From Bryobacteraceae bacterium (GTDB taxonomy: Bacteria; Acidobacteriota; Terriglobia; Bryobacterales; Bryobacteraceae): 64,000 bases of DNA. Below the pieces are notes generated by a model, which did no database searches, was not told where the DNA came from, and worked only from the letters and a program-made list of their open reading frames with translations. The translations under genes were made by a program, and so were the position numbers. The DNA is taken from positions 3,046,001 through 3,110,000 of the forward strand of contig BPGD01000001.1 in the NCBI GenBank assembly GCA_026002855.1. The letters are read 5' to 3'. Positions 45,203 through 62,453 of the stretch are shown one piece after another (the stretch's first letter is position 1; each line of letters begins with the position of its first letter).

Positions 45203-45622
45203 ATGGCCATCGAACGCACACTCGCCATCATCAAGCCGGACGCCGTCGCCGCCGGCAACGCCGGCCGCATCATCTCCATGATCGAGCAGGCCGGCTTCCG
45301 CATCCTCGCCATGCGGATGCAGACGCTCACCCGCCCCCAGGCTGAAGGCTTTTACGCCGTCCACCGCGGCAAGCCCTTCTTTGAGGAGCTAGTCGCCTTC
45401 ATGACCGAAGGCCCCGTCATCCTCATGGCCCTCGAGCGCGAAGACGCCATCGCCAAATGGCGCGAGGTCATGGGCGCCACCGACCCCAAGAAGGCCGCCC
45501 CGGGCACCGTCCGCGCCCTCTACGGCACTGACATCGGCCGCAACGCCAGCCACGGCTCGGACGCCCCGGAAACCGCCGCCTTCGAACTGGCCTGGTTCTT
45601 CCGCGGCGCGGAACTCGTCTGA
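45203..45622 (+). CDS. ndk: Nucleoside diphosphate kinase
   Basis: Balances nucleoside triphosphate pools using ATP. The 139-residue protein starts [20 protein letters not shown], contains [22 protein letters not shown], and has the phosphohistidine in the signature [16 protein letters not shown] near the C-terminus. AAAGGAAG lies 9 bases upstream of the ATG. It stands alone after sucCD and ends in a strong G+C-rich hairpin. Confidence 0.97.
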
Positions 45623-45642
45623 GGCGGCCGCGCGGCCGCCTC
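45621..45642 (+). terminator. Perfect 22-base palindrome after ndk
   Basis: GAGGCGGCCG followed by CGCGGCCGCCTC forms a perfect self-complementary hairpin that overlaps the ndk stop codon. There is no T-run, so it may act as a bidirectional or rho-dependent 3' barrier between ndk and the convergent gene at 45675. Confidence 0.5.
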
Positions 45643-46518: not shown

Positions 46519-47759
46519 GCTTCAATGGGGCCGCGACCAATTGGTCGCGGAAATAGTGTCCACTCTACGACACAGTCCGTTCCGCCGCGCGCGCTTCAAT
46601 GGGGCCGCGACCAATTGGTCGCGGAAATTCCGTGGGCGCAAATGTGCTGATTCTGGATCCTATCGGGCTTCAATGGGGCCGCGACCAATTGGTCGCGGAA
46701 ATCGGCGACAACGGCGAGCGCGCCGTCGTCGACGTGGAAGCTTCAATGGGGCCGCGACCAATTGGTCGCGGAAATGTCGTTCCTCACGGTAGAGCATAGC
46801 GGAGTCCGACGCTTCAATGGGGCCGCGACCAATTGGTCGCGGAAATTGGATGCGCCAGTACTGGCGCATGCATCACGGCGGATAGCTTCAATGGGGCCGC
46901 GACCAATTGGTCGCGGAAATCAAACTGTCGATAGCGCGGCGAATTTCGCGTGTCTCTTGCTTCAATGGGGCCGCGACCAATTGGTCGCGGAAATCGGACA
47001 GTGAATTCAAATGGGTACGGCGTTACAACGCTTCAATGGGGCCGCGACCAATTGGTCGCGGAAATCATCCACGAAGGAAGAGACGTCTCGCTCGCGCACG
47101 GTGGCTTCAATGGGGCCGCGACCAATTGGTCGCGGAAATCGCCTTCGTGATCCCATTCTCCACGACCGGCAACTGTCGCTTCAATGGGGCCGCGACCAAT
47201 TGGTCGCGGAAATAATCCAAGCGTCGAACGAGCCGGACTCACGTACTCAGGCTTCAATGGGGCCGCGACCAATTGGTCGCGGAAATACGTTCTTGAGCAG
47301 CTTGCCGTGATCCGTCAGGCCAGCTTCAATGGGGCCGCGACCAATTGGTCGCGGAAATGCAAGGCAAGGTACAGCATGGCCCGGCTCGGCTCGGCTGGCT
47401 TCAATGGGGCCGCGACCAATTGGTCGCGGAAATGGCGTGGGTCTACGTGTATCGCGCCGCCGAGGGCGGGGCTTCAATGGGGCCGCGACCAATTGGTCGC
47501 GGAAATACAGAATAAAATCTTGCGTATCATCGAACCATGGAAGCTTCAATGGGGCCGCGACCAATTGGTCGCGGAAATCTGAGGTGGTATCAGGAACTGC
47601 GATAGGCATGATCATGCTTCAATGGGGCCGCGACCAATTGGTCGCGGAAATGACGTTCAACGCGCGGTTGAGATTCGGAAAAACACGGCTTCAATGGGGC
47701 CGCGACCAATTGGTCGCGGAAATAGAACGTACCATCCGGTTCACGCCTGCCCCCAGACG

Positions 47760-48086
47760 GCTTCAATGGGGCCGCGACCAATTGGTCGCGGAAATGGGAT
47801 GGCGGAGGATAAGACCCAGTTCGGTGCGCCGGGCTTCAATGGGGCCGCGACCAATTGGTCGCGGAAATGGGATGGCGGAGGTAAGACCCAGTTCGGTGCG
47901 CCGGGCTTCAATGGGGCCGCGACCAATTGGTCGCGGAAATGGGATGGCGGAGGATAAGACCCAGTTCGGTGCGCCGGGCTTCAATGGGGCCGCGACCAAT
48001 TGGTCGCGGAAATGGGATGGCGGAGGATAAGACCCAGTTCGGTGCGCCGGGCTTCAATGGGGCCGCGACCAATTGGTCGCGGAAAT
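47760..48086 (-). repeat. Four tandem copies of one repeat-spacer unit in the array
   Basis: The spacers at 47796-47832, 47869-47904, 47941-47977 and 48014-48050 are the same sequence (begins GGGATGGCGGAGG). The second copy lacks one base. Copies this close to identical arise by recombination or slippage between repeats, not by independent acquisition. Confidence 0.95.
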
Positions 48087-50309
48087 GGTGCAGTGACCGC
48101 ACCGCACCGCCGGTCACCTCCGCGCTTCAATGGGGCCGCGACCAATTGGTCGCGGAAATCGACATCCCGGACCCGGAGGCCATTCTTGCGGATCCGCTTC
48201 AATGGGGCCGCGACCAATTGGTCGCGGAAATACTGACCTGATTCGGGAACTGCGGGCGGTGGTGGAGCTTCAATGGGGCCGCGACCAATTGGTCGCGGAA
48301 ATCTCCATTGATGCGGCCGTGTATCACTGGGATCAAGATGCTTCAATGGGGCCGCGACCAATTGGTCGCGGAAATCGTTCTGCGGATAGCCGATGTAGCT
48401 CTCCACGGATGCGGCTTCAATGGGGCCGCGACCAATTGGTCGCGGAAATCGTTCTGCGGATAGCCGATGTAGCTCTCCACGGATGCGGCTTCAATGGGGC
48501 CGCGACCAATTGGTCGCGGAAATGTATTCTAGACATTGCAGTCGGCAAGCCGCCGAAGGAGCTTCAATGGGGCCGCGACCAATTGGTCGCGGAAATGTAT
48601 TCTAGACATTGCAGTCGGCAAGCCGCCGAAGGAGCTTCAATGGGGCCGCGACCAATTGGTCGCGGAAATGGGAAATTATCGACACACAAACGTATCGGAG
48701 GATCGAGCTTCAATGGGGCCGCGACCAATTGGTCGCGGAAATCAAACGGCACGTTCATTTTTTCACCTCCATATTCTCGCTTCAATGGGGCCGCGACCAA
48801 TTGGTCGCGGAAATGCGCGTTCACTGCCGCCAGAAAGCCACGCTCCTCGCGGCTTCAATGGGGCCGCGACCAATTGGTCGCGGAAATGCCGGGGTCGTAT
48901 TCATCCGCGCTTCCCGGAAGGATGGCGGCTTCAATGGGGCCGCGACCAATTGGTCGCGGAAATACTTGTACCTGCCCAACGGGTTGCTTCGGTCGAAGTG
49001 CTTCAATGGGGCCGCGACCAATTGGTCGCGGAAATGCCGCGCGCGGGGCTCATCAGGCGGTAAAGGTCTGGCTTCAATGGGGCCGCGACCAATTGGTCGC
49101 GGAAATACTCCGAACAAGCTCGGGAACCCGCCACGAATGTACTGCTTCAATGGGGCCGCGACCAATTGGTCGCGGAAATGATGTCAATAGGTAGTTGCGT
49201 CTAAGTGTCGCTAGGAGCTTCAATGGGGCCGCGACCAATTGGTCGCGGAAATGCCGTCCAGAACGCCAATATCCAATCCGAAGTGACGCTTCAATGGGGC
49301 CGCGACCAATTGGTCGCGGAAATTCTTCCATGGTCATCAGGTCATCGGGCTGGTACTGAGCTTCAATGGGGCCGCGACCAATTGGTCGCGGAAATACGCT
49401 CCCGTTTCGCCACATCAGCGTCGACCCACTCTGGCTTCAATGGGGCCGCGACCAATTGGTCGCGGAAATTCTTCCATGGTCATCAGGTCATCGGGCTGGT
49501 ACTGAGCTTCAATGGGGCCGCGACCAATTGGTCGCGGAAATACGCTCCCGTTTCGCCACATCAGCGTCGACCCACTCTGGCTTCAATGGGGCCGCGACCA
49601 ATTGGTCGCGGAAATCATCACTCCGCCGAAGCAGACGGATTCCGGCATCTATGCTTCAATGGGGCCGCGACCAATTGGTCGCGGAAATTCTACCATGAGG
49701 AACGACCATGCGGATCAGCATCACACGCTTCAATGGGGCCGCGACCAATTGGTCGCGGAAATGTGATTGGTCTCTCCGATTCTGAGGAAAGAATCACAGC
49801 TTCAATGGGGCCGCGACCAATTGGTCGCGGAAATTGAGACAGACGCCGCGAATCGTAGGACGTGCGGACTGCTTCAATGGGGCCGCGACCAATTGGTCGC
49901 GGAAATTGCGCGCACGTGCGGGAACGCGTTGACGCCTTCGAGGCTTCAATGGGGCCGCGACCAATTGGTCGCGGAAATGGAGGCATGCCCGTGCGGTGCC
50001 TCATCGGTGATGCGGAGCTTCAATGGGGCCGCGACCAATTGGTCGCGGAAATATGGCGATGAGGGCAATGAAAGCGGCGGCGGCGGCTCGGCTTCAATGG
50101 GGCCGCGACCAATTGGTCGCGGAAATACTCGCCAGTCCCCCCCCCCCGGGTGCCGGATGGGCTTCAATGGGGCCGCGACCAATTGGTCGCGGAAATTTGT
50201 GGACTCCCTACGACACGGCGCTACGGCGCCGTGTCGCTTCAATGGGGCCGCGACCAATTGGTCGCGGAAATGTTCTGCTGCAACCGCTTCTGGAGCTCCT
50301 CACGGGGAA

Positions 50310-50633
50310 GCTTCAATGGGGCCGCGACCAATTGGTCGCGGAAATCGCGGCTGCGCTGGCGCAACCGCCGGCGCCTCCTGCGCTTCAATGGGGCCGCGAC
50401 CAATTGGTCGCGGAAATCGCGGCTGCGCTGGCGCAACCGCCGGCGCCTCCTGCGCTTCAATGGGGCCGCGACCAATTGGTCGCGGAAATCGCGGCTGCGC
50501 TGGCGCAACCGCCGGCGCCTCCTGCGCTTCAATGGGGCCGCGACCAATTGGTCGCGGAAATCGCGGCTGCGCTGGCGCAACCGCCGGCGCCTCCTGCGCT
50601 TCAATGGGGCCGCGACCAATTGGTCGCGGAAAT
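50310..50633 (-). repeat. Four identical tandem repeat-spacer units in the array
   Basis: Spacers at 50346-50381, 50418-50453, 50490-50525 and 50562-50597 are identical (begins CGCGGCTGCGCTGGC). The period is exactly 72 bases. Adjacent spacers at 50634-50670 and 50707-50743 are another identical pair. Confidence 0.95.
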
Positions 50634-51930
50634 CTCTGGCTGCCTCGATGTCGCGTCGCGACAGCACGATGCTTCAATGGGGCCGCGACCAATTGGTCGC
50701 GGAAATCTCTGGCTGCCTCGATGTCGCGTCGCGACAGCACGATGCTTCAATGGGGCCGCGACCAATTGGTCGCGGAAATACCGCCGTCGACCCTCACAGT
50801 CACCAGCCATGGTGGCTTCAATGGGGCCGCGACCAATTGGTCGCGGAAATTGCGAAGCCCCATGGATTGCGCATCAAGGACAACTGCTTCAATGGGGCCG
50901 CGACCAATTGGTCGCGGAAATCTGGGAACAGGAGATCAATCTGAAGCTGCTCGGCCCGGCTTCAATGGGGCCGCGACCAATTGGTCGCGGAAATGACAAA
51001 GCAGACCGCCTCGGCGACAAAAATCCACATAGCTTCAATGGGGCCGCGACCAATTGGTCGCGGAAATGCTGAGATCGATGCTGACCTGGCGGCCTCAGAT
51101 GTGCGGCTTCAATGGGGCCGCGACCAATTGGTCGCGGAAATCCTCCGACACGCGCCCCATTCCCAGCTCGGCAAACGAGCTTCAATGGGGCCGCGACCAA
51201 TTGGTCGCGGAAATGCGGCAGGGCTGCGTGCTGCTGATGGACCCGTACGGGCTTCAATGGGGCCGCGACCAATTGGTCGCGGAAATGGCGCAGCCCCCGG
51301 CCCCTCCCGCAAAGATTGTTGTGCTTCAATGGGGCCGCGACCAATTGGTCGCGGAAATCTCGAGCACATACGGGAGCCGCCCGCCGCTGGCGAAGCTTCA
51401 ATGGGGCCGCGACCAATTGGTCGCGGAAATCTCACGATCAACGTGAGCTGTCGCTGCGCGGTCTGCGGCTTCAATGGGGCCGCGACCAATTGGTCGCGGA
51501 AATCCAGCGCCGCCGCCGCGCGTACGAATCTCGGGCTCGGCTTCAATGGGGCCGCGACCAATTGGTCGCGGAAATTGAATCGGCGATCAGGTCACTCACG
51601 ATCGATAGGAGCGCTTCAATGGGGCCGCGACCAATTGGTCGCGGAAATATTCACCCGCAAGAATCTGCCTGGCTCCTGGGACTCGAGCTTCAATGGGGCC
51701 GCGACCAATTGGTCGCGGAAATATATCTCCTCAGACGTCAGCGCACGCGGAATGACCCGGCTTCAATGGGGCCGCGACCAATTGGTCGCGGAAATGTGGC
51801 GGCGACGTCGGAGGGTCGGTGACGCTTCAATGGGGCCGCGACCAATTGGTCGCGGAAATCTCGCCGGTCCCGTCATGCGTCGAGTGCGCGCGATGCTTCA
51901 ATGGGGCCGCGACCAATTGGTCGCGGAAAT

Positions 51931-52114
51931 AGCCTCAGGCCTTCTATTCTCTTTTCAAGCACCTGTGGCCCTGTTTGCGAGCGCCCAGGCCAATCGTCAC
52001 CTGGATCGCCCCGGCGCCTTCCTCTATCATGCCACATCCCCCCTTCTTTTCAAGCACTTTCCCTTCATCGAGCGCCCCCCCACCCCTCGCGCATCGCCCC
52101 GCCCCTCGCGCCCC
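51931..52114 (-). promoter_or_regulatory. Presumed CRISPR leader with two 13-base direct repeats
   Basis: The 184 bases between the cas4-cas1 stop and the last repeat. On the minus strand the motif GTGCTTGAAAAGA occurs twice, at plus coordinates 51950-51962 and 52045-52057, 95 bases apart. Both contain TTGAAA, a possible -35 element. This is the expected place for the leader because the array is inferred to run leftward. Function in promoter activity or spacer integration is inferred only. Confidence 0.65.
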
Positions 52115-53899
52115 TCAGCGGGTCACAAATACCGGATACTCCCCAATCTCCCCCTCCATGTACCTCGCCAACAACCTCGCCTGGATCTCCAGCAGCCTCC
52201 GATAGCTCACCCGATACTCGAACAATGGATGCGTCACCAGCGTGTCCATCCGCTGCTCATAGGCCCGGTAAAACGCCTTCCTCCCCTCCGGCTTCAGCAC
52301 CACCGCAGGGCCGGCCTGGACGAAGTCCTTCTCCGTAATCATCCGCGTATTGATCGCTTGGATCACCGCCGAATCCACCACCAGCGGCCGAAACGGCTCC
52401 ATCAGATCCAACGCCAGCGCCGGCCGCCCAAACCTGGGCTGGTGGTAAAACCCCATCATCGGATCAAAACCCACCGCATAGCACGTCACCGTGAGGTCCT
52501 TCGCCAGCAGACTGTAGCCCAGTGACAGCAACGCGTTCACCGCATCCCGCGGGGGCCGACGGTTCCGCCCGTGAAAATCCAGTCGGAACACCTTGGGCAC
52601 GTCCGTGCCCTCTCCTGTCTTGATCAGCCCCCCGAACGCCTCAAAATACAGCCTCGCCGCGTTCCCCTCCAGCCCCAGCAGCTCTTCCAGCGATTTCGCC
52701 CGCACCGCCACTTCCGCCATCCGCTTCATCTCCGCCAGCAGTCTCGCGTCCGGCTCCACGTGGTTGCGCAGGATCATCGTCCGCTGGTTCCGGATCTTGC
52801 CCGCCACCAGTTGCCGACCCAGCCGCAGGCAAAACCACGGCTCAGCCGCCAGACGGAACTGCATCTGGCGCAGAAATACGTTCTTCGTCACCAGCCCCGT
52901 CGTCACCCCGTAAAACCATCCCCCCCGGGAAAAATAGCAGACCGGCACCCCCTCCTCACACAGCGCCTGCACCGCCTGCGTCGTCACCTGGATATTCCCC
53001 ATCAGATTCAGTTGGCACAGGTCGTGAATCCGCAGCTCCTGCACCACCTTGTCCTCATCCTTGACCACCAGCACGTCGCCCGAGCGTCCCACCCGCAGCC
53101 CCTGCGTGTCCAGATACGCCGGCCGCAGCTCCGTCCGCGCCGACACCAGCCGCCGCACTCCGCCCTCGCTCATCGCCGGCTTCCGCGGCACCGGCTCGCC
53201 AAACAGCGACAGTTGCCGCTCGTCTCCGTCCCGGCCCACCCCCCGCAGCCAGTTCGTTTCATCCGGCAGACACACCGGGTGCAGCGAGCAGCCCGGACAC
53301 TTCGGCGACCCGGCCAGCGGAGGCGGCATTACTCCCCTCCGCGCCGTCTCCCAGGCTTCCCGTGCCGCCTTCAGCGTCTCCTCCACCAGCTCCGGCGTCA
53401 TCGCCACCCGCACCCGCTGCCGCGTCTCCTGGTAAAAGACGATCCCCTCGTCGCACTCGTAGCCGTTCTCCCGCAGGATCAACGCCTGCACCGCCAGCTG
53501 CGTCCGGTCCGACGGCCACGCTTCCAGCCCCGCCGCCGTCTCGCGCGGCCGTCCATGCTTGTAATCAACCGGCGTCACCCTCCTGCCCTCGCCCTCAATC
53601 AGGTCGATCCGCGCGATCAGCCGGTGCCGCTCGCTCGACAGCGTCACCGACCGCGTCTTCCACTCGCCCTCCGCCTCCCCGGGCGCCGCCATCGGCGCTC
53701 CCTCACGATCCACCCGCCGGTGCTGTTGCTTGCCCTCGATCGTGTCCGCGCTTTCGACGAAAATGCCTTCCACCCACTCGTAGAAAAACAGCCGCGGACA
53801 ATACACGTACTCGTTCACCATCCGCGCCGGCAGATAGTCCGGCAGCGTCCGGCCCGCCGCCGGCTCCCGTTCGCTCTCAGCAGGCAACGGAGCACCCAT
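52115..53899 (-). CDS. cas4-cas1: Cas4-Cas1 fusion protein
   Basis: A 594-residue adaptation protein. Residues ~20-215 are Cas4: iron-sulfur cysteines in VYCPRLFFYEW (C34) and KCPGCSLHPVC (~201-210), and RecB-nuclease residues in TPVDYKHGRPRE. Cas1 follows from about residue 240; its metal residues are the Glu in LEGNAARLYFEAF (~415), the His in MGFYHQPRFGRP (~486) and the acidic LALDLMEPFRPLVVD. Cas4-Cas1 fusions are known in type I-G, where Cas4 trims prespacers and reads PAM while Cas1-Cas2 integrates. AGGAGGT sits 5 bases before the ATG at 53899, deciding the start over an ATG at 53932. It follows cas2 by 22 bases. Confidence 0.96.
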   Translation of the reverse strand: MGAPLPAESEREPAAGRTLPDYLPARMVNEYVYCPRLFFYEWVEGIFVESADTIEGKQQHRRVDREGAPMAAPGEAEGEWKTRSVTLSSERHRLIARIDLIEGEGRRVTPVDYKHGRPRETAAGLEAWPSDRTQLAVQALILRENGYECDEGIVFYQETRQRVRVAMTPELVEETLKAAREAWETARRGVMPPPLAGSPKCPGCSLHPVCLPDETNWLRGVGRDGDERQLSLFGEPVPRKPAMSEGGVRRLVSARTELRPAYLDTQGLRVGRSGDVLVVKDEDKVVQELRIHDLCQLNLMGNIQVTTQAVQALCEEGVPVCYFSRGGWFYGVTTGLVTKNVFLRQMQFRLAAEPWFCLRLGRQLVAGKIRNQRTMILRNHVEPDARLLAEMKRMAEVAVRAKSLEELLGLEGNAARLYFEAFGGLIKTGEGTDVPKVFRLDFHGRNRRPPRDAVNALLSLGYSLLAKDLTVTCYAVGFDPMMGFYHQPRFGRPALALDLMEPFRPLVVDSAVIQAINTRMITEKDFVQAGPAVVLKPEGRKAFYRAYEQRMDTLVTHPLFEYRVSYRRLLEIQARLLARYMEGEIGEYPVFVTR

Positions 53900-53921
53900 C
53901 TCGCACCTCCTGCCCTGACCT

Positions 53922-54212
53922 TCAAACCACATAACACGGCGCGTCGAAGCTCGTATACGGACGCCCGATCGCCGTGATCACCCGGTCCCCGCGCCCTTCC
54001 GCCGGCCCCAGATCCACAAACAGCACCTGGTCCTGCTCGTGATGGATCACCTCCCCAAGCTCCCCCTTCAGCTCCGCCAGCTCCGCCCTCGTCAACTGAC
54101 ACTCAAACACCGACAGTTGCAGATGATCCCCCCACCCCCGCATGATCTGAAACACCCGCCTCAGCCGCTTGTCATCCGAGATGTCGTAACACACCAGGTA
54201 CGAGTTCCGCAT
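53922..54212 (-). CDS. cas2: CRISPR-associated endonuclease Cas2
   Basis: A 96-residue ferredoxin-like protein: SYLVCYDISDDKRLRRVFQIM with the conserved Asp at the end of strand 1, LQLSVFECQLTRAELAELKGEL, and DQVLFVDLGP. Cas2 forms the central dimer of the Cas1-Cas2 integrase. Full family length. It lies between a structured 295-base interval and the cas4-cas1 gene. Confidence 0.96.
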   Translation of the reverse strand: MRNSYLVCYDISDDKRLRRVFQIMRGWGDHLQLSVFECQLTRAELAELKGELGEVIHHEQDQVLFVDLGPAEGRGDRVITAIGRPYTSFDAPCYVV

Positions 54213-54507
54213 GGCCGCCGCTACAGCTCACGGCTGTGTTTGCAAAAATCATCGGCTGGAACGGCCCGCGGAATTAGGACCTACAGACGCATGATGAAAT
54301 GGGCGCCTGCACGGACGGTTAGCATCCGCCGGGACTTCGCTCGCGCCCGGGACGGAAGGATATCTCCGATGTCCGTGCAACCTCTTCAGTTTCAGAACGA
54401 TGCCAACTTGCTCCCCTGGTCTGACTCTCGTCTCCGTCTCCCCGGAGCAGATTGTCTTCACCCAACGGTACGCCCCGGGGCGTACATGGCTCTCCGCATC
54501 GGCTTCG
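54213..54507 (-). ncRNA. Structured interval between csb2 and cas2, possible ncRNA
   Basis: The only sizeable gap inside the cas operon. It contains a perfect 18-base palindrome GTACGCCCCGGGGCGTAC at 54468-54485. A 9-bp long-range stem (TGCACGGAC at 54308-54316 with GTCCGTGCA at 54371-54379) encloses a second hairpin (CCGGG with CCCGG, extended by TCCG/CGGA). A 70-codon minus-strand ORF (54249-54461) has no recognised motif and may be chance. The array repeat handle does not occur here. It could be a regulatory RNA, a toxin-antitoxin RNA of the CreTA kind, or the remnant of a group II intron or other insertion; none is established. Confidence 0.4.
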
Positions 54508-56043
54508 CTACTCCGGCTGCGAAGTCAGGGGAACAAATAGCCCCAGACCGTAATGCGATCCCCAGCCGAGACAAAGTGGCCCCCGAACTTCCTCCTTGAA
54601 CTGGATCGTGACGTGATAAATGCCCGATTCCGGAGGCGCTTCGCCGCCTTGCCGCGTGAGTGCAAAATGCCGGAACCACAATGCCTGTCGGCCGAATTCG
54701 GTCCCCGCTGTCGGACTCGTCACGACAGGCTCGCAGGCGAGTTCTGGCAGTCCCCTTGCTTCCAGTTCCGCACGAATCTGCCCCTGCAGCGTGTCTTTCC
54801 CTTTCCGTTTTAAATGCCTCGGAGGCACAAACGGCGTCCGGCTAACCCAGACCCTGCCGGACGACAACTCCATAACTCTCTCCCCTCCAATGCTTGAAAA
54901 AAACTCTCTTTGGCCCAGGGCTACCAGCGTGACCGCAACTTCCTCGAACCCCTTGGCCCATGTCCGCCGGATGCGGCGCAGAGCCCTCTCTGCAATTGGT
55001 CCAAATCCCATGGGGGCGTGGACAAGCACGTGGTCAATCCTCGGAGGCTGACTTCGGCTTAGACAGAGCGGAATGTAATGAGCATGGGCGTGCTCAAGCC
55101 GCAGCGGGGCTCCCTCCATGTCCTTACCCGTCAATTCAGGACATGCGCCGCTCACCTGCAGGTCTCCGATCATCGCTAATAGCGCCTTCCGGAACAGAGC
55201 CATCGTCGGATAGGCCCGCTCCATCAGGGGTAGGACACTTCGACGGAAATTCGTCGAGAGCACGAACAACGCCGTATCAAATTCACGCCGGCTTTTTACT
55301 GCCATCCCGGTCTCTCGCCCGGACTGAGGACGCTCCATGGCATCACAAGGCAACCAATAGACCACTTCACGCGCCCCGGGCGGCATGTTCCACCCTCCCT
55401 TCTGAACGTCCCCAGTCTCCATCTGGAGTGCTTCCAGAAGGTTCTTCGGGGCCCCTGGAAAGTCCTTGCACCATGCCGTATACTCCGCAGCCCGCATCGG
55501 AGCAAGCAGCCGCACCGGTTCATAGTCGGCTTGCTGACGTTCCGTTGTTACGATGATCTCGGGTAATTTTAAGTCCGGGCCATCGTTCGAGCCCAGCCTG
55601 ACCTTCACACGCGACTCCGCCCGCCCAAGATAGCTGAGCCGTGGCACAAGTTCTCTGAGCAGTTGAAGCATTCTCTCATCCGCCCGAGCGGGCCAATCCA
55701 CTACCAGAGGACCATCGGCCTCCAGAAATGCATCGATCACCAGACTGGTTTCCACCCTCCCCTTCTTCAGCCCCCTCACTGGCATATAGTGGCGGCTATG
55801 GCCGGCCGTCGCCCGGGGTAGCCGATACATCGGCTCCTGCTCGGCCATCAGCTCCACAAGGTCCGCCATCTCCTGCGGGACCTGTTGCCAACCCATCTTG
55901 GTGTAGCCCACCGAAATGAGCGCTCGAAGAATCCGCCATGGGCTCGGAGGCCACTCGACCAGCCCCTCGTTCACATGGTGACCCCAGGGCGTGGCATGAT
56001 ACCCCCGAGCCGCAAACTCGAAAATCAGACGAATCATCGTCAT
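54508..56043 (-). CDS. csb2: Csb2 (GSU0054 family, Cas5-Cas6 fusion of type I-G)
   Basis: A 511-residue protein diagnostic of type I-G. The N-terminal Cas5-like part starts MTMIRLIFEFAARGYHATPWGHHVNEGLVEWPPSPWRILRAL, the usual GSU0054 N-terminus. The C-terminal part carries the Cas6-like RNA endonuclease, with candidate catalytic His in LEHAHAHYIPLCLS and a Gly-rich end GPLCLGWGSHYGLGLFVPL. It should cap the 5' end of the crRNA and cut the array transcript within the repeat. The ATG at 56043 overlaps the csb1 stop (ATGA). No separate cas6 is present, as expected. Confidence 0.94.
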   Translation of the reverse strand: MTMIRLIFEFAARGYHATPWGHHVNEGLVEWPPSPWRILRALISVGYTKMGWQQVPQEMADLVELMAEQEPMYRLPRATAGHSRHYMPVRGLKKGRVETSLVIDAFLEADGPLVVDWPARADERMLQLLRELVPRLSYLGRAESRVKVRLGSNDGPDLKLPEIIVTTERQQADYEPVRLLAPMRAAEYTAWCKDFPGAPKNLLEALQMETGDVQKGGWNMPPGAREVVYWLPCDAMERPQSGRETGMAVKSRREFDTALFVLSTNFRRSVLPLMERAYPTMALFRKALLAMIGDLQVSGACPELTGKDMEGAPLRLEHAHAHYIPLCLSRSQPPRIDHVLVHAPMGFGPIAERALRRIRRTWAKGFEEVAVTLVALGQREFFSSIGGERVMELSSGRVWVSRTPFVPPRHLKRKGKDTLQGQIRAELEARGLPELACEPVVTSPTAGTEFGRQALWFRHFALTRQGGEAPPESGIYHVTIQFKEEVRGPLCLGWGSHYGLGLFVPLTSQPE

Positions 56044-57059
56044 CCCCTGGCGGGCCCGAACTTCACCTTCCGGACACACATCCCGTACGGGACCGCCGCC
56101 CCCTTCTTCGATTCCGTCAGCTCTCTGATGAGCCTTGGCAGCTCTCCCGTCCACCTTCCGTCCTCACCGCGGTCCCCAACAAAGTCCTTGTAGCTCGGCA
56201 ATTTGAACTCCGGAACGTTTCTGCTGGCAATTCCATCTCTGCTCTTGAGCTCAAAGCAGCATGCCGTCCTCAAACGCATCGGACTGTCCACAAACGAGCG
56301 CAGCTTGAACAGCGCCAGCAGTATCAGAAGCCGCGTCGGTTCTTCGTCCAACCCATAGCCGCGGATCTGAGCCAGGTCAATGCTCGCATACAGGGTGATC
56401 TTCTCCGCTGTATACTCGTCACGCGGGAAGGGAACGTTGCCGAACCCTTCCTTCGCTGATCGGCCCCTTTCTTCATCCTTGGTGGCCTGGATCCGGTCGT
56501 TCTTGACTCCCCCCGACGCCGCCAACCGAATGCCGTCCGCCTCAATGAAAGCGGAGATGGCACGCGCCACCCGCAGCCGTCCGTCAATGCTCTCAAGAAA
56601 AACTCCGTGTAGCAGCGACCCGACGTCGTACCTGAAAAGCGTTTGGGCCAGTTTTCGGCGATCGATAGGCCTGTCTTTTCCTCCCAGCCCGCTCCTCAGT
56701 TCATCGTGCAGGGATGGTTGGGCCTTTTCGATATAAACGCTGTTGATTCGGTGAGCCTCCAGCATGGAGCTGGTGAGAAACGCTCCCTCCGCGTCCTCCA
56801 CCCGCACATGACTCAGCCCGCGCAGTGGCTCGATGACGTCATTCGCCCCTTCATCCCAGCAGACCGCCTCCAGCCGGTTGGCCATGCTCTGGGCAGATTC
56901 CACCAGCAGGGACCTCCCGTACGGAGTGTCAAATTCTGCAGCTCCAAGATCAGGAAATCCCGTCGGCTGGAAGCGGTGCCCTAGGCGTACCCCCAGCTGA
57001 ATCTCAAACAGCAGATCGTACTTGCCGTCAAGCAGGGACAGATCAATGGACATAAGCAC
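56040..57059 (-). CDS. csb1: Csb1 (GSU0053 family, Cas7 backbone protein)
   Basis: A 339-residue RRM-fold protein that forms the crRNA-binding filament of the effector complex. Family features: LRLGHRFQPTGFPDLGAAEF-like opening, SAQSMANRLE, ESAH/EAHR region TSSMLEAHRINSVYI, RKLAQTLFRYDVGSLLHGVFL and C-terminal LLALFKLRSFVDSPMRLRTAC. Close to the usual length for the family. 17 bases separate it from csx17, and csb2 overlaps by 4 bases. Confidence 0.93.
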   Translation of the reverse strand: MLMSIDLSLLDGKYDLLFEIQLGVRLGHRFQPTGFPDLGAAEFDTPYGRSLLVESAQSMANRLEAVCWDEGANDVIEPLRGLSHVRVEDAEGAFLTSSMLEAHRINSVYIEKAQPSLHDELRSGLGGKDRPIDRRKLAQTLFRYDVGSLLHGVFLESIDGRLRVARAISAFIEADGIRLAASGGVKNDRIQATKDEERGRSAKEGFGNVPFPRDEYTAEKITLYASIDLAQIRGYGLDEEPTRLLILLALFKLRSFVDSPMRLRTACCFELKSRDGIASRNVPEFKLPSYKDFVGDRGEDGRWTGELPRLIRELTESKKGAAVPYGMCVRKVKFGPARG

Positions 57060-57076
57060 TCCTTCTCTTCAACGTC

Positions 57077-59548
57077 TCATCCTTCCTCGCCCTTTCCTTC
57101 ATAGGGCTTGCACACCAGTGCCGCCGCACGGGCGGCGTCGTTCTCTGAGATGGGAAACACCAGGCTCGCCGCGATTCGCCGGGCCAGCACCGGCATGCGT
57201 ATACCACGGCACAGAACCGGTCGTAGACCGCTGGCAGTGAGCCGGTGAACCGTGGTTTCTAGTGCCCCTTCGAGGTCTCCACCCGCGAGCCTCCGCAACG
57301 GCTCAGGGTCGAACCGCACGGCGACGCGAGCTGCCACCCCACCTTCTCCGCTCCCAACCGGAACGTCAAATGGAAGATAAGCGAGCCGGAACAACGATTG
57401 CAGCGGCTCAACCGTTCCAGATCTCATGCTTGCAGGAATTGCATCGCTCGTTGTCAGCCCTGCCCAGTTGATCGCCGCCATCGGACGGGCAAGATCGAGA
57501 ATCAATCGGTCATGCTGCGGATTCCATAACCACCAACCCACCTCCTCGAGCGTCGCCTCACATCCGCGCGGCCCCCATAGCGGCAGTCGCGGCACGCCCC
57601 CTCTCTGGCCTGCGAGCCAGCGGGACCAGATCGAACGCCGGCGCAGAACGGCCAACGCGTCACTGACCAGGTCACGGCCCATGCACACCCACTCCGGATC
57701 GATCCCGTTGCTCCCGCTTTCACTGGTGCGAAAACGCGCTTCCGGTGCGTCAGGATTTTCCAAGGGCAGGAAGTGGCATCGCACTGATCCCTGCATCTTG
57801 TTCTCGCCGTCTTCGGGCGGACGACGCTGGGCCGCAAGTGAGAGCGCGAGCCGAAGCACCGCACGGCCTGCCTCCGTGCCATCGTCCATCGCCTTCACCC
57901 ATCTCAGGCTCAGTCTGGGCAGCGGACGAACCCCACGGCTACGATAACGGCGCGCCAGTTCGAGTTCCGCTCGCCCCAGAAGAACCAATAATCGCCTTAT
58001 ATCGTGCGGCGTAGCCTCTCGCCGGCAGAGGGAAAAGACCACGTCCTGTACCTGCTTGCCAAGCGCCGCTAGGCTTCGGGGTGCGCTCTTCTCTCGTGCC
58101 AGCACGGAAAGGCTGTCGATCCACGGCGCCACCTCGTCAAGTAGAGTCTGGAACCGTCGCGCCGCCACACAAAACCGTCCCGCTGAAATGGCAAGAGTCG
58201 ACTGCCCGTTCCTCTCCAGATATGCAAATCGCTGAAGCGCTTCAATACCCCGTGCCAGCCCCAACCGTGCCGCTGCACGCACCATCTCCGTGGCCTTCGT
58301 CGCCGTGCTTCGCCCTACCTGCGCTCGGCCCTCCCGGATCAGCTCCTGCAGCTCTTCATACAGCAGAGGGGCTTGCCAGATGGGGAGCCACTGCTCTCCC
58401 CTTGTCGCCTCCTCGCTCGCTGACGCGCTCCCGTACCCCGCTGAACTGGCATCTACCCAAAAAGGAGAGGCATATCGGGGCCGGCCCGTCTCGCCTCGTC
58501 TCGTAACACCCGCCACCAGTGCGACTGCACCTTCCAGCATCAGAACAAATTCCCACGGGTTGACCGCCGGCCTCCCTTCGTACCCTGTCCCCATGTTTGC
58601 GCCGCCCGCCCGCCCGGGGAAGAATTGTCCCACCGGTTCCTCAACCAGGGTCTCGGCCGGTGTGCCCAGCAGGGTTGCCTTCAACCTGCCCTCCGTCTCC
58701 TGTCTGGGTTGCCCTGTCTCAAAATCGAACAGACGGCCCAGGTGTCGCCGGAAATGCTTGGTAAACTCCATCCTTCCATCCACACCGCCCGTTCCAAAAA
58801 CAGGTGCAAACCGAAGATCCATCCCCTCGCCTTCATCCAGGTAAACTGCGGCGTCCACCCACTGCCCGGCTACCTCGCCCAGTCGCTTGCGCAGGTCAGC
58901 CACCATCTGCGCCTTCGCACGAGCCAGCTCCTCTCTGAAATTCTTTTTCGCTTCTTCAAGCTCTTTTCGTGCGCCGTTGCTACCCTGATTCCCGGATCCT
59001 GACGCCGACTGCTGTCGAGCCCTTCCTTTCGCTTGCCGGACTTCGCGCTCCCTCTGCTGTAAACTGCTCGGCATACATTCCAGGCAGATTTCAATGGCCC
59101 TCTTCAGCTCCTCGAACCTGCTGGCCTTCGAGTTCAGAAGCTGCCTCAACAGAGGATCCATGTCTGCCCCCTCGCTTTTCCCCTCCTCCGGCTCTGTATT
59201 ACTCTCCGTGTCTTCATCCTCCGTGTTGGTCATACACCCCGCGCCACCCGCACTGCCCTTCTTGGCACTGGCCTCATCGCCCGCTTCTTCCGGGCTGAAA
59301 GAGAAAAACCCTCCTTCTTGGTTCCATGGCGCCAGGATCGGAGTCGGCCTGTACTCCTCGCAGAAAAACTTTAACAATCCATCCCAGTCAAGGCTCGTTA
59401 CCAGGACAAAATGTTCATCGGCCCAGTAACCGCGCGCGCTCCGGTCCTTCTGCCCGCTGACCAGTCGAAGCACCCCCAAAGCGCCCAGGTATGTCGCCAG
59501 CGCCTCAGGCTTGAGCCCGGTGAGTCGATGAACGTGCACCCTGTTCAC
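57077..59548 (-). CDS. csx17: Csx17 (Cas8-type large subunit of type I-G)
   Basis: An 823-residue large subunit. The N-terminus HRLTGLKPEALATYLGALGVLRLVSGQ and the stretch LKFFCEEYRPTPILAPWNQEGGFF are hallmarks of Csx17. The middle contains an acidic low-complexity segment (TEDEDTESNTEPEEGKSE, near residues 110-125) and a charged coiled coil (ARKELEEAKKNFREELARAKAQM). The C-terminus carries GVPRLPLWGPRGCEATLEEVGWWLWNP. Family role: recognition of the PAM and the target strand in the effector complex. It lies 31 bases after cas3. Confidence 0.93.
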   Translation of the reverse strand: MNRVHVHRLTGLKPEALATYLGALGVLRLVSGQKDRSARGYWADEHFVLVTSLDWDGLLKFFCEEYRPTPILAPWNQEGGFFSFSPEEAGDEASAKKGSAGGAGCMTNTEDEDTESNTEPEEGKSEGADMDPLLRQLLNSKASRFEELKRAIEICLECMPSSLQQREREVRQAKGRARQQSASGSGNQGSNGARKELEEAKKNFREELARAKAQMVADLRKRLGEVAGQWVDAAVYLDEGEGMDLRFAPVFGTGGVDGRMEFTKHFRRHLGRLFDFETGQPRQETEGRLKATLLGTPAETLVEEPVGQFFPGRAGGANMGTGYEGRPAVNPWEFVLMLEGAVALVAGVTRRGETGRPRYASPFWVDASSAGYGSASASEEATRGEQWLPIWQAPLLYEELQELIREGRAQVGRSTATKATEMVRAAARLGLARGIEALQRFAYLERNGQSTLAISAGRFCVAARRFQTLLDEVAPWIDSLSVLAREKSAPRSLAALGKQVQDVVFSLCRREATPHDIRRLLVLLGRAELELARRYRSRGVRPLPRLSLRWVKAMDDGTEAGRAVLRLALSLAAQRRPPEDGENKMQGSVRCHFLPLENPDAPEARFRTSESGSNGIDPEWVCMGRDLVSDALAVLRRRSIWSRWLAGQRGGVPRLPLWGPRGCEATLEEVGWWLWNPQHDRLILDLARPMAAINWAGLTTSDAIPASMRSGTVEPLQSLFRLAYLPFDVPVGSGEGGVAARVAVRFDPEPLRRLAGGDLEGALETTVHRLTASGLRPVLCRGIRMPVLARRIAASLVFPISENDAARAAALVCKPYEGKGEEG

Positions 59549-59579
59549 AAACCGATCCCTCCCGTCTTCCGTCTCCCTT

Positions 59580-62453
59580 TCAACGCCTCGCCGCCGCCCT
59601 GGGCCTCAATCGTCCCTTTGCCGGTTGACCTGCCTGCCGACCCTCATTCACAGCCTTTAGGCTCCTCTCGATCCACTCGGTGAGCGAGCCGTCACTCCGC
59701 TCCTCATTTCCCGCCGCCGGAAGCTGCGCTTCATACTCGCTAAGCAACGGATCAATGGGTTCACAAATTCGGGATGCCCGCGTGTCGGCAACACGCATCA
59801 GTGCTTCAAACCACGCAAGCTGGAAGTCGCCAAACGCCCTTCGTAGACGAAGCGCCCGCTCCCCCCAGCTCGGCCCGTAGCGGCAGGAAAGCCCCAGACG
59901 CGCCGGATCAAGGTGCAGCTCCACCGAAGGAAACACGAAATCCGACCCGGAAAAATCGAGGAGTTTCAGTTCAGGTAACTTGTCTCCTTCCCGAATCCCC
60001 CGAATCGGCAGGTCGCCGGCTGGCCCCGGATTTTCCTGATCTCGCGGACTCATCGGCAGCGTGGCCCGGGCCTTGCCGTGATGACTCATGATGAGATACA
60101 GAACCAGATTTACCTGATTTGCATCCAGCTTTAGCAGCCCTTCGAGGATCCGGGGGACTTCTGCCATCTTTTCTTTTTCAGCAGGACGAACCCGACCGAT
60201 TGTGGCCTCTAGGATGCCCTCTTCATCGCCCTGCATGGCAGGATGCTCAGGAGACGCCCGCCAAATGGCCTCCATGAGCGCCAGAACACTCGCAACCTCG
60301 TGCCGGAAGCTCGGCCGCCGTCCCAGTGGACTGTGATCGAATAAGTCAGGCGCCGAGTGCCAGCATCCCTCGGGTGCCTTGGCCAGCGGAATCTCGCACG
60401 GGATCCCGTTTCTGTTGCTGATGGCGTACGCAAACGCCGGGTGCGCTTTCCCGATGTCATGAAAGATGCCCGCAAATTCAAAAACTCGCCCCTCGGCCTC
60501 ACCTTTCACACCGAGGCTCAACGCAAGCCGCCGGATCACCTCCGCAACCTCTCTTCCATGCGTGGCAATCGTCTTGTACTGTCGTGCAGCCTCAGCCAGC
60601 CCCAGGCTCAGGTCCTCCTGGGTCTCCGCCTCGTCAGCGGATTCATCGGGCACAACTCCTCGCACGTGTGTCCTGTCCACACGGACCCGGCCGCTCTTGC
60701 CAGTAAATCCGATCGCGTCGTCATACCCCCCTGCATTGGCGTCCACAAGAATGGTCTGCCCGGGGTACAGATGTCGCTGCCGTAACTCCTCCCACTCACC
60801 ATCGAGGTAGCTCCAGACCCAGGCCCTCGGCCGGCGCCCGCTCGGACGGCCCGTTCCCAACTCTTCCTCATCACGCGCGGAGGCGCTTCCGGACAGAAGC
60901 CACTTGCGTGCCTCACCAATCGGCACTCGGCAGAGCGCATCCTCCGTGGGCCGCAGTCGCGGATGCGGCCGCTCCCCATCCGGCACCGGCCACCACCAGA
61001 CCATCACGTCTCGTTCGCTTCCCTCCCGGATGAAACGCGAAATGTCCACCTCGGCGCCGGTCAGGTCGGGCCCTGTGTCAAACAGGTCGCCAAGCTCACG
61101 GCGAGTAATAACGTGCAGTGGAGCATAAGGGTACAGCCGTGGCAGGATGCCACCGTCTTCTCTCTTTGCCTCCTCAGCCTCAAATCGCCAGATATCTGCC
61201 GGAGCCGCACTTCCGGCAAGTCGCTGCAATGCCTCCGCGGCTGCTTCCATTTCGTCGGGTTCGTAAGGCGCCAACGCTTTGGCATCGTTCTTCCAATCGC
61301 CGCCGGGCGGGGAGAATACCACAATTCGACCGCTACCCCCATAACGCGCGCAACGGCCGAACCGCTGGATCAGAGAGGTCCACGGAGCCAGCTCGGTTAC
61401 CAGCAGATCGGCAGAAATGTCAACGCCGGCCTCGATCACCTGCGTCGTCACGATGACCCGGTTTGCGTCTCCACCGCAACTCTCCCTCTTGAGAAACTCC
61501 TTCGCCCAGGCTCTACGCTCCGAACCTCGAAAACGCGAATGAATCAGGCGTATCTCAACTCTACTGTTTTGGAGCTCCCGCCTGAGCGCATGGTGTAGCT
61601 CAATGGCTGTCTTCACTGTGTTACAGACGGCGAGCGTCACCCTTCCCCCATGCTCTTGCGCAATGATTTGCGCCATCGTCCCTGCCCGATTCTCTCCGGC
61701 GGGAATTGGTTTTATCTGCAAACTTTTCTTCGTATTCCAAAGCGCGCTCCCCCGCTCTACATCCTCAAGCTCAAGGACGGGAATTTCCTGTACATTCGTC
61801 AATGCAGGCGCAGTCCGAAACCAGTCCTCACGCAGTGTGGCGCTCATCCACCACGTCCGCCGCGGCCGCGGCATCCGTCCTTCCCGCTCCTCACCGTCCG
61901 CAATCCCCTGGAGCTGTGCACTCGTCGCCAGCCCCACGCTCATGAGCTGCACCTCATCCATCACCCAGAGACAATCAACGTTGATCAGTCCAAACTCCAT
62001 CGGCCAGCGCGCACGTCCCGATCCATAACCCCGGTTCAGGGCCCGCGACAGAAGCATGTCCTGGGTTCCGATCAGCACTGCATCCCCTTCCGGGTCAAGA
62101 TGCCAATCAGTCGGCGAAAGTCCCCCCATGAGAACATGAACTTTGGGCTGGTTTGGCAATTTCACGCGCTCGATCCAATCCCGGACAGACCGCTCCGTCT
62201 GCTCTACCAGCGTTCGCATGGGCAGGCAGTAGACCAGACGCCGGGGCCAGTTGGAGTCTTGTCTGCACACCCTGTGCCAAAGCCACGTCAGGACCACGCC
62301 GGCGGTCTTTCCGAAGCCCGTCGGAATTCGTATCAGACGGTTGCGGCAGATGCTGTCCGCTGCAAGCCGTGCCTGCCACTTGTGAACGCTTTGGAAGCCC
62401 GTTGCCTGTCCAAAAAAAGCGCTGAAACCGCCATCAAAGATACTGCTCGACAT
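59580..62453 (-). CDS. cas3: Cas3 helicase-nuclease with C-terminal HD domain
   Basis: A 957-residue protein that unwinds and degrades target DNA after recruitment by the effector. Helicase motifs: Walker A IRIPTGFGKT (residues 41-50), DEVQ-type Walker B WVMDEVQLMSV, RFGRCARYGGSGRI (motif VI). The HD nuclease is C-terminal, not N-terminal as in most Cas3 proteins: FAGIFHDIGKAHPAF (near residue 665), SFRHEVASVLAL and LIMSHHGKARA (near 788). That order is known for type I-G. The ATG has GGAGAGC 5-6 bases upstream. It is the first gene of the operon. Confidence 0.95.
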   Translation of the reverse strand: MSSSIFDGGFSAFFGQATGFQSVHKWQARLAADSICRNRLIRIPTGFGKTAGVVLTWLWHRVCRQDSNWPRRLVYCLPMRTLVEQTERSVRDWIERVKLPNQPKVHVLMGGLSPTDWHLDPEGDAVLIGTQDMLLSRALNRGYGSGRARWPMEFGLINVDCLWVMDEVQLMSVGLATSAQLQGIADGEEREGRMPRPRRTWWMSATLREDWFRTAPALTNVQEIPVLELEDVERGSALWNTKKSLQIKPIPAGENRAGTMAQIIAQEHGGRVTLAVCNTVKTAIELHHALRRELQNSRVEIRLIHSRFRGSERRAWAKEFLKRESCGGDANRVIVTTQVIEAGVDISADLLVTELAPWTSLIQRFGRCARYGGSGRIVVFSPPGGDWKNDAKALAPYEPDEMEAAAEALQRLAGSAAPADIWRFEAEEAKREDGGILPRLYPYAPLHVITRRELGDLFDTGPDLTGAEVDISRFIREGSERDVMVWWWPVPDGERPHPRLRPTEDALCRVPIGEARKWLLSGSASARDEEELGTGRPSGRRPRAWVWSYLDGEWEELRQRHLYPGQTILVDANAGGYDDAIGFTGKSGRVRVDRTHVRGVVPDESADEAETQEDLSLGLAEAARQYKTIATHGREVAEVIRRLALSLGVKGEAEGRVFEFAGIFHDIGKAHPAFAYAISNRNGIPCEIPLAKAPEGCWHSAPDLFDHSPLGRRPSFRHEVASVLALMEAIWRASPEHPAMQGDEEGILEATIGRVRPAEKEKMAEVPRILEGLLKLDANQVNLVLYLIMSHHGKARATLPMSPRDQENPGPAGDLPIRGIREGDKLPELKLLDFSGSDFVFPSVELHLDPARLGLSCRYGPSWGERALRLRRAFGDFQLAWFEALMRVADTRASRICEPIDPLLSEYEAQLPAAGNEERSDGSLTEWIERSLKAVNEGRQAGQPAKGRLRPRAAARR

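What the first reader, a model, noticed from the sequence alone, without database searches (positions are those of the whole stretch)
46519..62453. Complete type I-G (I-U) CRISPR-Cas locus with a large intact array
All genes expected for I-G are present and apparently intact: cas3 (HD at the C-terminus), csx17, csb1, csb2, cas2, cas4-cas1 fusion, and 75 perfect repeats. No cas6 gene exists because csb2 should supply that activity. Type I-G is one of the less studied class 1 subtypes, so a clean locus next to a long array is useful for PAM and processing work.
Basis: partly seen in the sequence, partly recalled or inferred. Interest (0 to 1): 0.7.

Follow-up and report, generated by a model that had tools for sequence, protein, structure and literature searches.

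The report
Complete CRISPR type I-G immune locus
This acidobacterium carries a complete and ordinary CRISPR type I-G immune system with a 75-repeat memory bank, and the DNA just before the memory bank holds a three-part sign, shared with relatives in several phyla, that may tell the system where to insert new memories.

Summary
The array (46519-51930) has 75 identical 36-nt repeats and 74 spacers. Beside it on the minus strand lie cas4-cas1, cas2, csb2, csb1, csx17 and cas3 (C-terminal HD). All six pass NCBIfam cut-offs, five of them for I-G models. It is a new member of a known subtype, Cas8g1/Csx17 branch, read leftwards from a 184-nt leader. The repeat hairpin ends 4 nt before the 8-nt handle, as published for Csb2 cutting; 46 of 50 repeats share this.

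(2) I-G leaders in several phyla share three half-sites (GCGAGCG, CGCTCGC 34-35 nt on, CGCTCGC 53-56 nt before the array). Arm2-arm3 spacing falls in three classes about one helical turn apart. With windows fixed beforehand, 20 of 21 further family leaders had all three (shuffled mean 0.01); 4 of the 21 had been seen before as pattern hits. I read it as a docking or folding site for spacer insertion. An unread 2025 survey may already report it. No PAM was established.

The parts
46519..51930 (-). CRISPR array, 75 identical 36-nt repeats, 74 spacers; in crRNA sense the repeat is ATTTCCGCGACCAATTGGTCGCGGCCCCATTGAAGC, newest spacers inferred at the right-hand end
   Evidence: orientation from handle, leader and relatives
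51931..52114 (-). leader, 184 nt, between cas4-1 stop and first repeat; promoter-like TTGAAA-16-CATGAT at 52053-52026
52103..52109 (-). leader arm 1 (GCGAGGG, one mismatch to GCGAGCG)
52068..52074 (-). leader arm 2 (CGCTCGA, one mismatch to CGCTCGC), inverted to arm 1, 35 nt on
51977..51983 (-). leader arm 3 (CGCTCGC, exact), starts 53 nt before the array
52115..53932 (-). cas4-cas1 fusion, 605 aa
   Evidence: NF049935 745.5 bits; PDB 7mi4, E 1.8e-142
53922..54212 (-). cas2, 96 aa, overlaps cas4-1 start
   Evidence: TIGR01573 37.4 bits; PADLOC Cas2g
54508..56043 (-). csb2 (Cas5-Cas6 fusion), 511 aa, corrected start
   Evidence: TIGR02165 166.4 bits; ATGA overlap
56040..57059 (-). csb1 (Cas7g), 339 aa
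   Evidence: TIGR02570; PDB 8ane, E 6.4e-78
57077..59548 (-). csx17 (Cas8g1), 823 aa
   Evidence: TIGR04113 502.4 bits; PDB 8b2x, E 2.2e-81
59580..62453 (-). cas3 (Cas3g), 957 aa, helicase then C-terminal HD nuclease
   Evidence: TIGR02621 700.1 bits; Cas3 HD model at residues 631-807, 44.7 bits, cut-off 43.45

Best explanation
An intact type I-G CRISPR-Cas locus (Cas8g1/Csx17 branch) of an acidobacterium. Cas4/1-Cas2 inserts new spacers at the right-hand (leader) end of the array. The array is transcribed leftwards. Csb2 cuts the pre-crRNA 4 nt downstream of an 8-bp hairpin to leave the 8-nt handle ATTGAAGC. Csb1, Csb2 and Csx17 form Cascade on the crRNA, and Cas3 degrades matched phage DNA. 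Shown here: gene content, open frames, conserved motifs, hairpin geometry, leader half-sites. Inferred from homologues: orientation of reading and insertion, and the biochemical steps. Inferred here: the three-part leader site is where the adaptation complex, or a factor that folds the leader for it, docks.
For: HMM and PDB hits. Conserved motifs (residue roles recalled): Cas3 G46-T50, D166-E167, H665-D666; Cas4 C45, C212, C215, C221; Cas1 E422, H497, D509; Csb2 H497. The repeat folds to an 8-bp stem (-15.8 kcal/mol, 0 of 200 shuffles as good) that ends 4 nt before the handle, as in 46 of 50 distinct repeats, the window's included. Leader site: at most 1 mismatch in 45, 42 and 43 of 47 non-redundant leaders for arms 1, 2, 3 (shuffle means 8.0, 6.3, 1.5), and in 20, 20 and 21 of 21 further family leaders with windows fixed beforehand (shuffle means 4.6, 1.9, 0.56). 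Of the 47, 31 have an effector label: all three arms in 10 of 16 Cas8g1 and 14 of 15 Cas8g2 leaders. A phage-like spacer: spacer 61 resembles a portal-protein gene.
Against: No expression, interference or acquisition data. Pieces of 4 of the 64 spacers had no exact match in viral contigs; 3 of 4 degenerate scans also found nothing. Array-wide searches of phage and plasmid records gave only weak matches (best E 0.5 and 0.003). Arms 1 and 2 of the window's own leader each carry one mismatch, and 8 of 29 leaders outside the clade lack at least one arm at the one-mismatch level. What binds the leader site is untested. Duplicated spacers could partly be assembly or recombination effects.
Confidence: 0.88

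Rival explanations
1. The leader half-sites are an operator for a transcription factor that controls the pre-crRNA promoter, not a site for spacer insertion.
For: An AT-rich stretch lies 15-40 nt downstream of arm 2, and -10-like hexamers cluster slightly there (best 8-nt bin 11, shuffled mean 6.5, maximum 10); the window has a promoter-like site there. DNA looping by a repressor would also give helical phasing.
Against: Total -10-like sites are not clearly enriched (36 of 59 loci, shuffled mean 29.3, maximum 38). The site is shared by several phyla, so the binder would have to travel with the locus, and the window's locus has no regulator gene between array and cas3.
Confidence: 0.3
2. Arms 1 and 2 form an RNA hairpin (terminator of the cas transcript or leader-RNA structure).
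For: They are inverted; shared deviations of arms 1 and 2 number 4 against a shuffled mean of 1.3 (41 of 2000 shuffles as high).
Against: The unpaired arm 3 shares deviations with arm 2 more strongly (8 against 2.8; 2 of 2000) and with arm 1 about as much (5 against 1.6; 24 of 2000), and arm2-arm3 spacing falls in classes about a helical turn apart, which fits DNA recognition. These shuffles do not correct for relatedness. No terminator-like site was found in the window's leader region.
Confidence: 0.1
3. The locus is a relic: array present but adaptation or interference dead.
For: Four same-genus genomes lack csx17, so the system is dispensable; no exact protospacer was found in the searches made.
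Against: All frames open, motifs conserved, all 75 repeats identical, a full-length leader.
Confidence: 0.08

Closest known systems
Thioalkalivibrio sulfidiphilus type I-G effector (PMC9638904, passages read; PDB 8ANE, 8B2X)
   Same: Cas7/Csb1, Cas8g1/Csx17, Csb2 and Cas3 set; hairpin with the cut 4 nt downstream of the stem and an 8-nt handle
   Different: in Thioalkalivibrio 5 genes lie between csb2 and cas4-1 (figure legend); here only cas2 does
Geobacter sulfurreducens Cas4/1-Cas2 (PDB 7MI4 and related; organism from PMC10504553 and recall)
   Same: Cas4-Cas1 fusion, 573 query residues aligned, E 1.8e-142
   Different: here cas2 precedes cas4-1; that the Geobacter effector is of the Cas8g2 (GSU0052) type is recalled
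Within-subtype effector replacement beside constant cas4 (PMC5704561, section 5 read)
   Same: Cas8 clusters, I-U included, were mapped on a Cas4 tree and effector replacements reported
   Different: our examples are Acidobacteriota and include identical repeats with Cas8g1 or Cas8g2 effectors
Type I-F leader inverted-repeat motifs contacted by Cas2 in an IHF-folded leader (PMC12259127, passages read)
   Same: inverted sites in the leader; integrase recognises a folded leader
   Different: binder unknown here; three half-sites with one unpaired proximal copy; I did not compare the sequences

Membership tests
CRISPR-Cas type I-G (formerly I-U) | Cas8g (Csx17 or GSU0052 type) large subunit | tested here: met
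   TIGR04113 502.4 bits, cut-off 150; PDB 8b2x
CRISPR-Cas type I-G (formerly I-U) | Csb1/Cas7g backbone | tested here: met
   TIGR02570 93.5 bits, cut-off 38; PDB 8ane
CRISPR-Cas type I-G (formerly I-U) | Csb2, fused Cas5-Cas6, with the processing histidine near the C terminus | tested here: met
   TIGR02165 166.4 bits, cut-off 45; H497 invariant in 21 of 21 rows. Equivalence to H503 of Thioalkalivibrio rests on position only; no PDB sequence hit; Pfam model sub-threshold
CRISPR-Cas type I-G (formerly I-U) | Cas3g with C-terminal HD | tested here: met
   TIGR02621 700.1 bits; HD match at residues 631-807 of 957
CRISPR-Cas type I-G (formerly I-U) | Cas4-Cas1 fusion and cas2 | tested here: met
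   NF049935 745.5 bits, cut-off 560; TIGR01573
CRISPR-Cas type I-G (formerly I-U) | no separate cas6 or cas11 in the locus | tested here: inconclusive
   no cas6 among the six locus proteins; a cas6 exists elsewhere in the genome beside cas10; cas11 was not searched for
CRISPR-Cas type I-G (formerly I-U) | TTN PAM | tested here: inconclusive
   one overlapping spacer pair (53/66, 20 of 24 identical) places TTT 5' of spacer 53; among other overlapping pairs in 62 arrays, read by eye, one gives TTG and at least two do not give TTN
CRISPR-Cas type I-G (formerly I-U) | crRNA-guided DNA interference | not testable with these tools
   needs the strain or a heterologous assay

The most novel reading that the evidence does not exclude
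Type I-G leaders in several phyla carry a subtype-specific address: an inverted pair of half-sites (core CTCG/CGAG) 34-35 bp apart, plus a third half-site 53-56 bp before the first repeat, with the pair-to-third spacing changing by about whole helical turns (classes near 80, 89 and 101 bp). The site is bound as folded DNA by the Cas4/1-Cas2 integrase itself (or a leader-folding partner), whichever effector type the locus carries, and is how the I-G integrase finds and orients on its array.
Probability: 0.3. Interest if true: 0.62.

Novelty: new member of a known kind. Interest (0 to 1): 0.4.

Why it matters
As a locus it is a clean Acidobacteriota example of Cas8g1-type I-G with a long array, useful but ordinary. 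The leader site matters more. In the passages I could read, how the type I-G adaptation complex recognises its leader is left open: PMC10504553 suggests possible host factors, and PMC9456107 mentions only the leader-repeat junction and repeat motifs for I-G among others. Three short half-sites with helical spacing give a direct, cheap mutagenesis test, and would help to orient and classify I-G arrays. The constant hairpin-to-handle gap (46 of 50 repeats) extends one measured Csb2 cut to a prediction for the subtype.

Tried and rejected
Protospacers and PAM. The whole array was compared with phage records (13 records with weak hits, best E 0.5), plasmid records (6 records, best E 0.003), the own genome (no match outside the array better than E 0.038; 40 of 43 candidates scored) and 299 genomes of the class (only 2 candidates per genome were scored, so protospacers may have been missed). 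Three class hits were examined. Spacer 15 lies in a TonB-receptor-like frame and spacer 53 in a permease-like frame (both named by eye); I dismiss both as chance or conserved genes. Spacer 69 shares a tail-fibre-like stretch (label recalled, not searched).

Insertion site. Same-genus genomes keep the left flank up to window 45622-45641 (compared again for two of the four). In G004, a single contig, the right flank lies at least 390 kb away; in the three drafts it lies on other contigs or over 100 kb away. No clean empty site was found.

Rfam: only sub-threshold CRISPR-DR16 (27.1 bits against 35). -10 clustering in leaders is weak. An RNA hairpin of arms 1 and 2 is less favoured than DNA half-sites.

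Effector swap as the headline was rejected because PMC5704561 already reports within-subtype effector replacement including I-U.

Rows dropped and limits. Cas4-1 tree: 63 of 79 proteins of at least 480 aa, plus the window; 18 rows without a label not counted; labels assigned by me from the tblastn scores. The Cas8g2 HMM did not ring in G199; its label rests on tblastn to L045 (38% over 237 aa, 154 bits). Its array is split between two contigs. Leaders: 56 with at least 150 nt upstream of the array, 4 exact duplicates and 5 near-copies dropped, 47 left. The motif came from 20 leaders, but distance windows were set after the listing of all 52, so the 29 leaders outside the clade are not blind. 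In one search the windows were those: 31 stretches were fetched, one of 60 nt not examined, 6 without a repeat, 3 already used, 21 left, all of one family. Of these 21, 4 (L190, L208, L210, L213) had already appeared as exact pattern hits; without them all three arms stand in 16 of 17. Genomes G251, G336 and G379 had been seen without an exact hit. The prediction in my notebook was for Pseudomonadota, which I could not test. That note counts 52 pattern hits; a recount gives 51.

Literature: searches. [quoted passage not shown] Two older leader papers (for one, 104 for the other) and a DOI that I recall as the Cas4-Cas1 fusion PAM paper are not held either.
Full report
Observation. The window carries 75 identical copies of a 36-nt repeat from 46519 to 51930 and 74 spacers of 28-40 nt, 64 of them different. 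The chromosome (4,437,915 bases, one contig; window at 3046001-3110000) has no further copy at up to 3 mismatches. Six genes on the minus strand follow: cas4-cas1, cas2, csb2, csb1, csx17, cas3. Each passes its curated NCBIfam cut-off, and all but Cas2 hit I-G models; PADLOC agrees. The best solved relatives are the Cas4/1 fusion 7mi4, Cas7 8ane and Csx17 8b2x. Csb2 has no sequence relative in the PDB at E 0.001, and Cas3 only other Cas3 helicases. The csb2 start is corrected to 56043, where an ATG overlaps the csb1 stop.

Intactness. In alignments of 19-23 rows including the window the motifs that I recognise from general knowledge are kept: Cas3 Walker A, DE box, motif VI and HD; Cas4 cysteines; Cas1 E422, H497 and D509; a C-terminal Csb2 histidine (H497, 21 of 21). 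The published active-site residue of the Thioalkalivibrio Csb2 is H503 at the C terminus (PMC9638904, passages). I could not align to that sequence, so equivalence is by position.

Orientation and processing. In relatives with both, the repeat in the strand of cas4-1 reads ...CATTGAAGC and the array follows the adaptation genes. Here the leader is therefore 51931-52114 and the array is read leftwards. As RNA the repeat folds to an 8-bp stem with an AATT loop, then CCCC, then the 8-nt handle. PMC9638904 reports that Csb2 cuts 4 nt 3' of the hairpin base to leave an 8-nt handle and calls this unusual. In 46 of 50 distinct 36-37-nt repeats, the window's included, a perfect stem of at least 6 bp ends exactly 4 nt before the last 8 nt, so the geometry looks subtype-wide.

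Host and distribution. The host's family holds genomes whose contigs match, by length, records named Bryobacterales (for example L037 and G023, L042 and G339, L044 and G395) and Acidobacteriaceae bacterium KBS 96 (L038 and G012). It is thus an acidobacterium, probably of the Bryobacteraceae (inferred). Of 200 family genomes, 41 have Cas4g/Cas1g above cut-off, 29 Csx17 and 13 a Cas8g2 match, 4 of them above cut-off. The four same-genus genomes have no Csx17. The left flank (succinyl-CoA ligase and nucleoside diphosphate kinase genes) is kept in all four up to window 45622-45641. The right flank lies elsewhere, clearly so in the one complete genome. The locus sits at a synteny break and was probably gained by this lineage; that direction is inferred.

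Effector exchange. Relatives with similar adaptation genes carry either Csx17 (Cas8g1) or the short Cas8g2. On a tree of 64 Cas4-1 proteins the label (24 Cas8g1, 22 Cas8g2, 18 unlabelled) needs 11 changes; strongly supported branches force 9 (shuffled mean 15.4, so the label is still somewhat clustered). Two examples. Loci L057 and L060 have 97.4% identical Cas4-1 and the same repeat but different effectors. Genome G199 has the window's exact repeat and a 67.5% identical Cas4-1 but a Cas8g2-type effector. G152 and G353 hold both types. This is not new in kind: PMC5704561 (section 5 read) describes in situ effector replacement within subtypes and included I-U in the search.

Leader site. Aligning 20 leaders of the clade showed little conservation except GCGAGCGG, about 27 nt later CCGCTCGC, then a third CGCTCGC near the array followed by a short stretch before the repeat. 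Over 47 non-redundant leaders, arms 1, 2 and 3 are within one mismatch in 45, 42 and 43; dinucleotide shuffles (200) give means 8.0, 6.3 and 1.5 and maxima 18, 16 and 6. All three occur in 18 of 18 leaders of the clade and its family genomes and in 21 of 29 others, but the windows were set after the listing of all loci. With windows kept, 21 further leaders of the family gave 20, 20 and 21, all three in 20 of 21 (shuffled mean 0.01, maximum 1). Four of the 21 had been seen as pattern hits; without them it is 16 of 17. Over both sets (68 leaders), arm 1 to arm 2 is 34 or 35 nt in 60 of 62 pairs. Arm 3 starts 53-56 nt before the array in the 64 leaders where it is within one mismatch (49-57 was searched). 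Arm 2 to arm 3 falls in 78-82, 87-92 and 98-103 with nothing between (59 leaders; my class means 80.0, 89.3 and 100.7). Resultant length at 10.5 bp is 0.731, maximum of 2000 uniform simulations 0.422. Spacing is partly inherited, so these are not 59 independent cases, and in the 39 leaders periods of 10-12 fit about equally well. The centre CTCG is nearly invariant. Edge deviations are shared between arms 2 and 3 more than in shuffles (8 against 2.8, 2 of 2000); relatedness is not corrected. A pattern search over 399 class genomes gave 51 hits against 34 for the backwards control (my counts from the table). Of 30 hits examined, 16 lie just before an I-G array and 14 do not. The exact pattern is thus not specific genome-wide, and the window itself misses it because arms 1 and 2 each carry a mismatch.

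Reading of the leader site. It occurs beside both effector types, so an effector-specific reader is unlikely. Helical phasing and an unpaired third arm favour recognition as DNA. In type I-F, leader inverted-repeat motifs are contacted by Cas2 in an IHF-folded leader (PMC12259127, passages). I therefore think the I-G site most likely docks or folds the leader for Cas4/1-Cas2. This is inference. An operator for the pre-crRNA promoter is the main rival: an AT-rich stretch follows arm 2, with weak -10 clustering. Whether the site is already described I cannot tell: the 2025 leader-motif survey is not held.

Targets. Spacer 61, translated by hand, reads WEQEINLKLLG. A viral contig has WEQEINFKLFG, with 28 of 37 bases the same, inside a Phage_portal protein (E 1.2e-95). 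Spacer 69 encodes a tail-fibre-like stretch (AARTNLGL) also seen in an open frame of a family genome (label recalled). Exact pieces of 4 spacers had no viral match, and nothing convincing was found in the own genome. Spacers 53 and 66 overlap (20 of 24), and the flank read from 66 puts TTT before 53, which agrees with the TTN reported for I-G (PMC9638904). A survey of PAMs lists TAC, TAN, TTN, AAN and TTC for I-G in different genera (PMC8482600, passage), and overlapping spacers in other arrays are mixed. The PAM stays open.

Verdict. The finding is right and ordinary in kind; the leader site is what deserves a second look.

Noticed in passing
G000:C1:3725287-3734168 (outside the window; L137): The same genome has a type III (III-A-like) locus: cas1, a second gene with only a Cas1 N-terminal match, a Cas_NE0113 gene, a Csm6-HEPN gene, cas6, cas10 and csm2. 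No array was seen in the 26 kb fetched around it, which raises the question whether it uses crRNAs from elsewhere.
   Followed up: partly
G000:C1:227666-228124, 4320491-4320949, 466644-466946 (L138-L140): Three Cas1-like matches; in the two stretches whose frames I listed they do not look like intact genes. Two have the same score and profile range and may be copies of one element; the third gave Pfam Cas1 at E 2.2e-5.
   Followed up: partly
L057, L059, L060, L072, L095: In these leaders a fourth half-site, GCGAGCG, begins 11 nt before the array, inverted to arm 3.
   Followed up: no
window 53922-54212 and relatives: In the nearest relatives (Bryobacterales-type loci and Planctomycetota loci L046-L048, L051) cas2 precedes cas4-1. 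It follows it in other loci of the same two phyla (L057-L060, L064, L072, L095) and in most others seen.
   Followed up: partly
window 51796-51823: Spacer 73 is only 28 nt long, against 34-40 nt for all other spacers.
   Followed up: no
G225:C1:3236753-3236883: A second leader with all three arms lies before another array of the same genome, with only a short stretch matching the Cas4-1 C terminus upstream.
   Followed up: no
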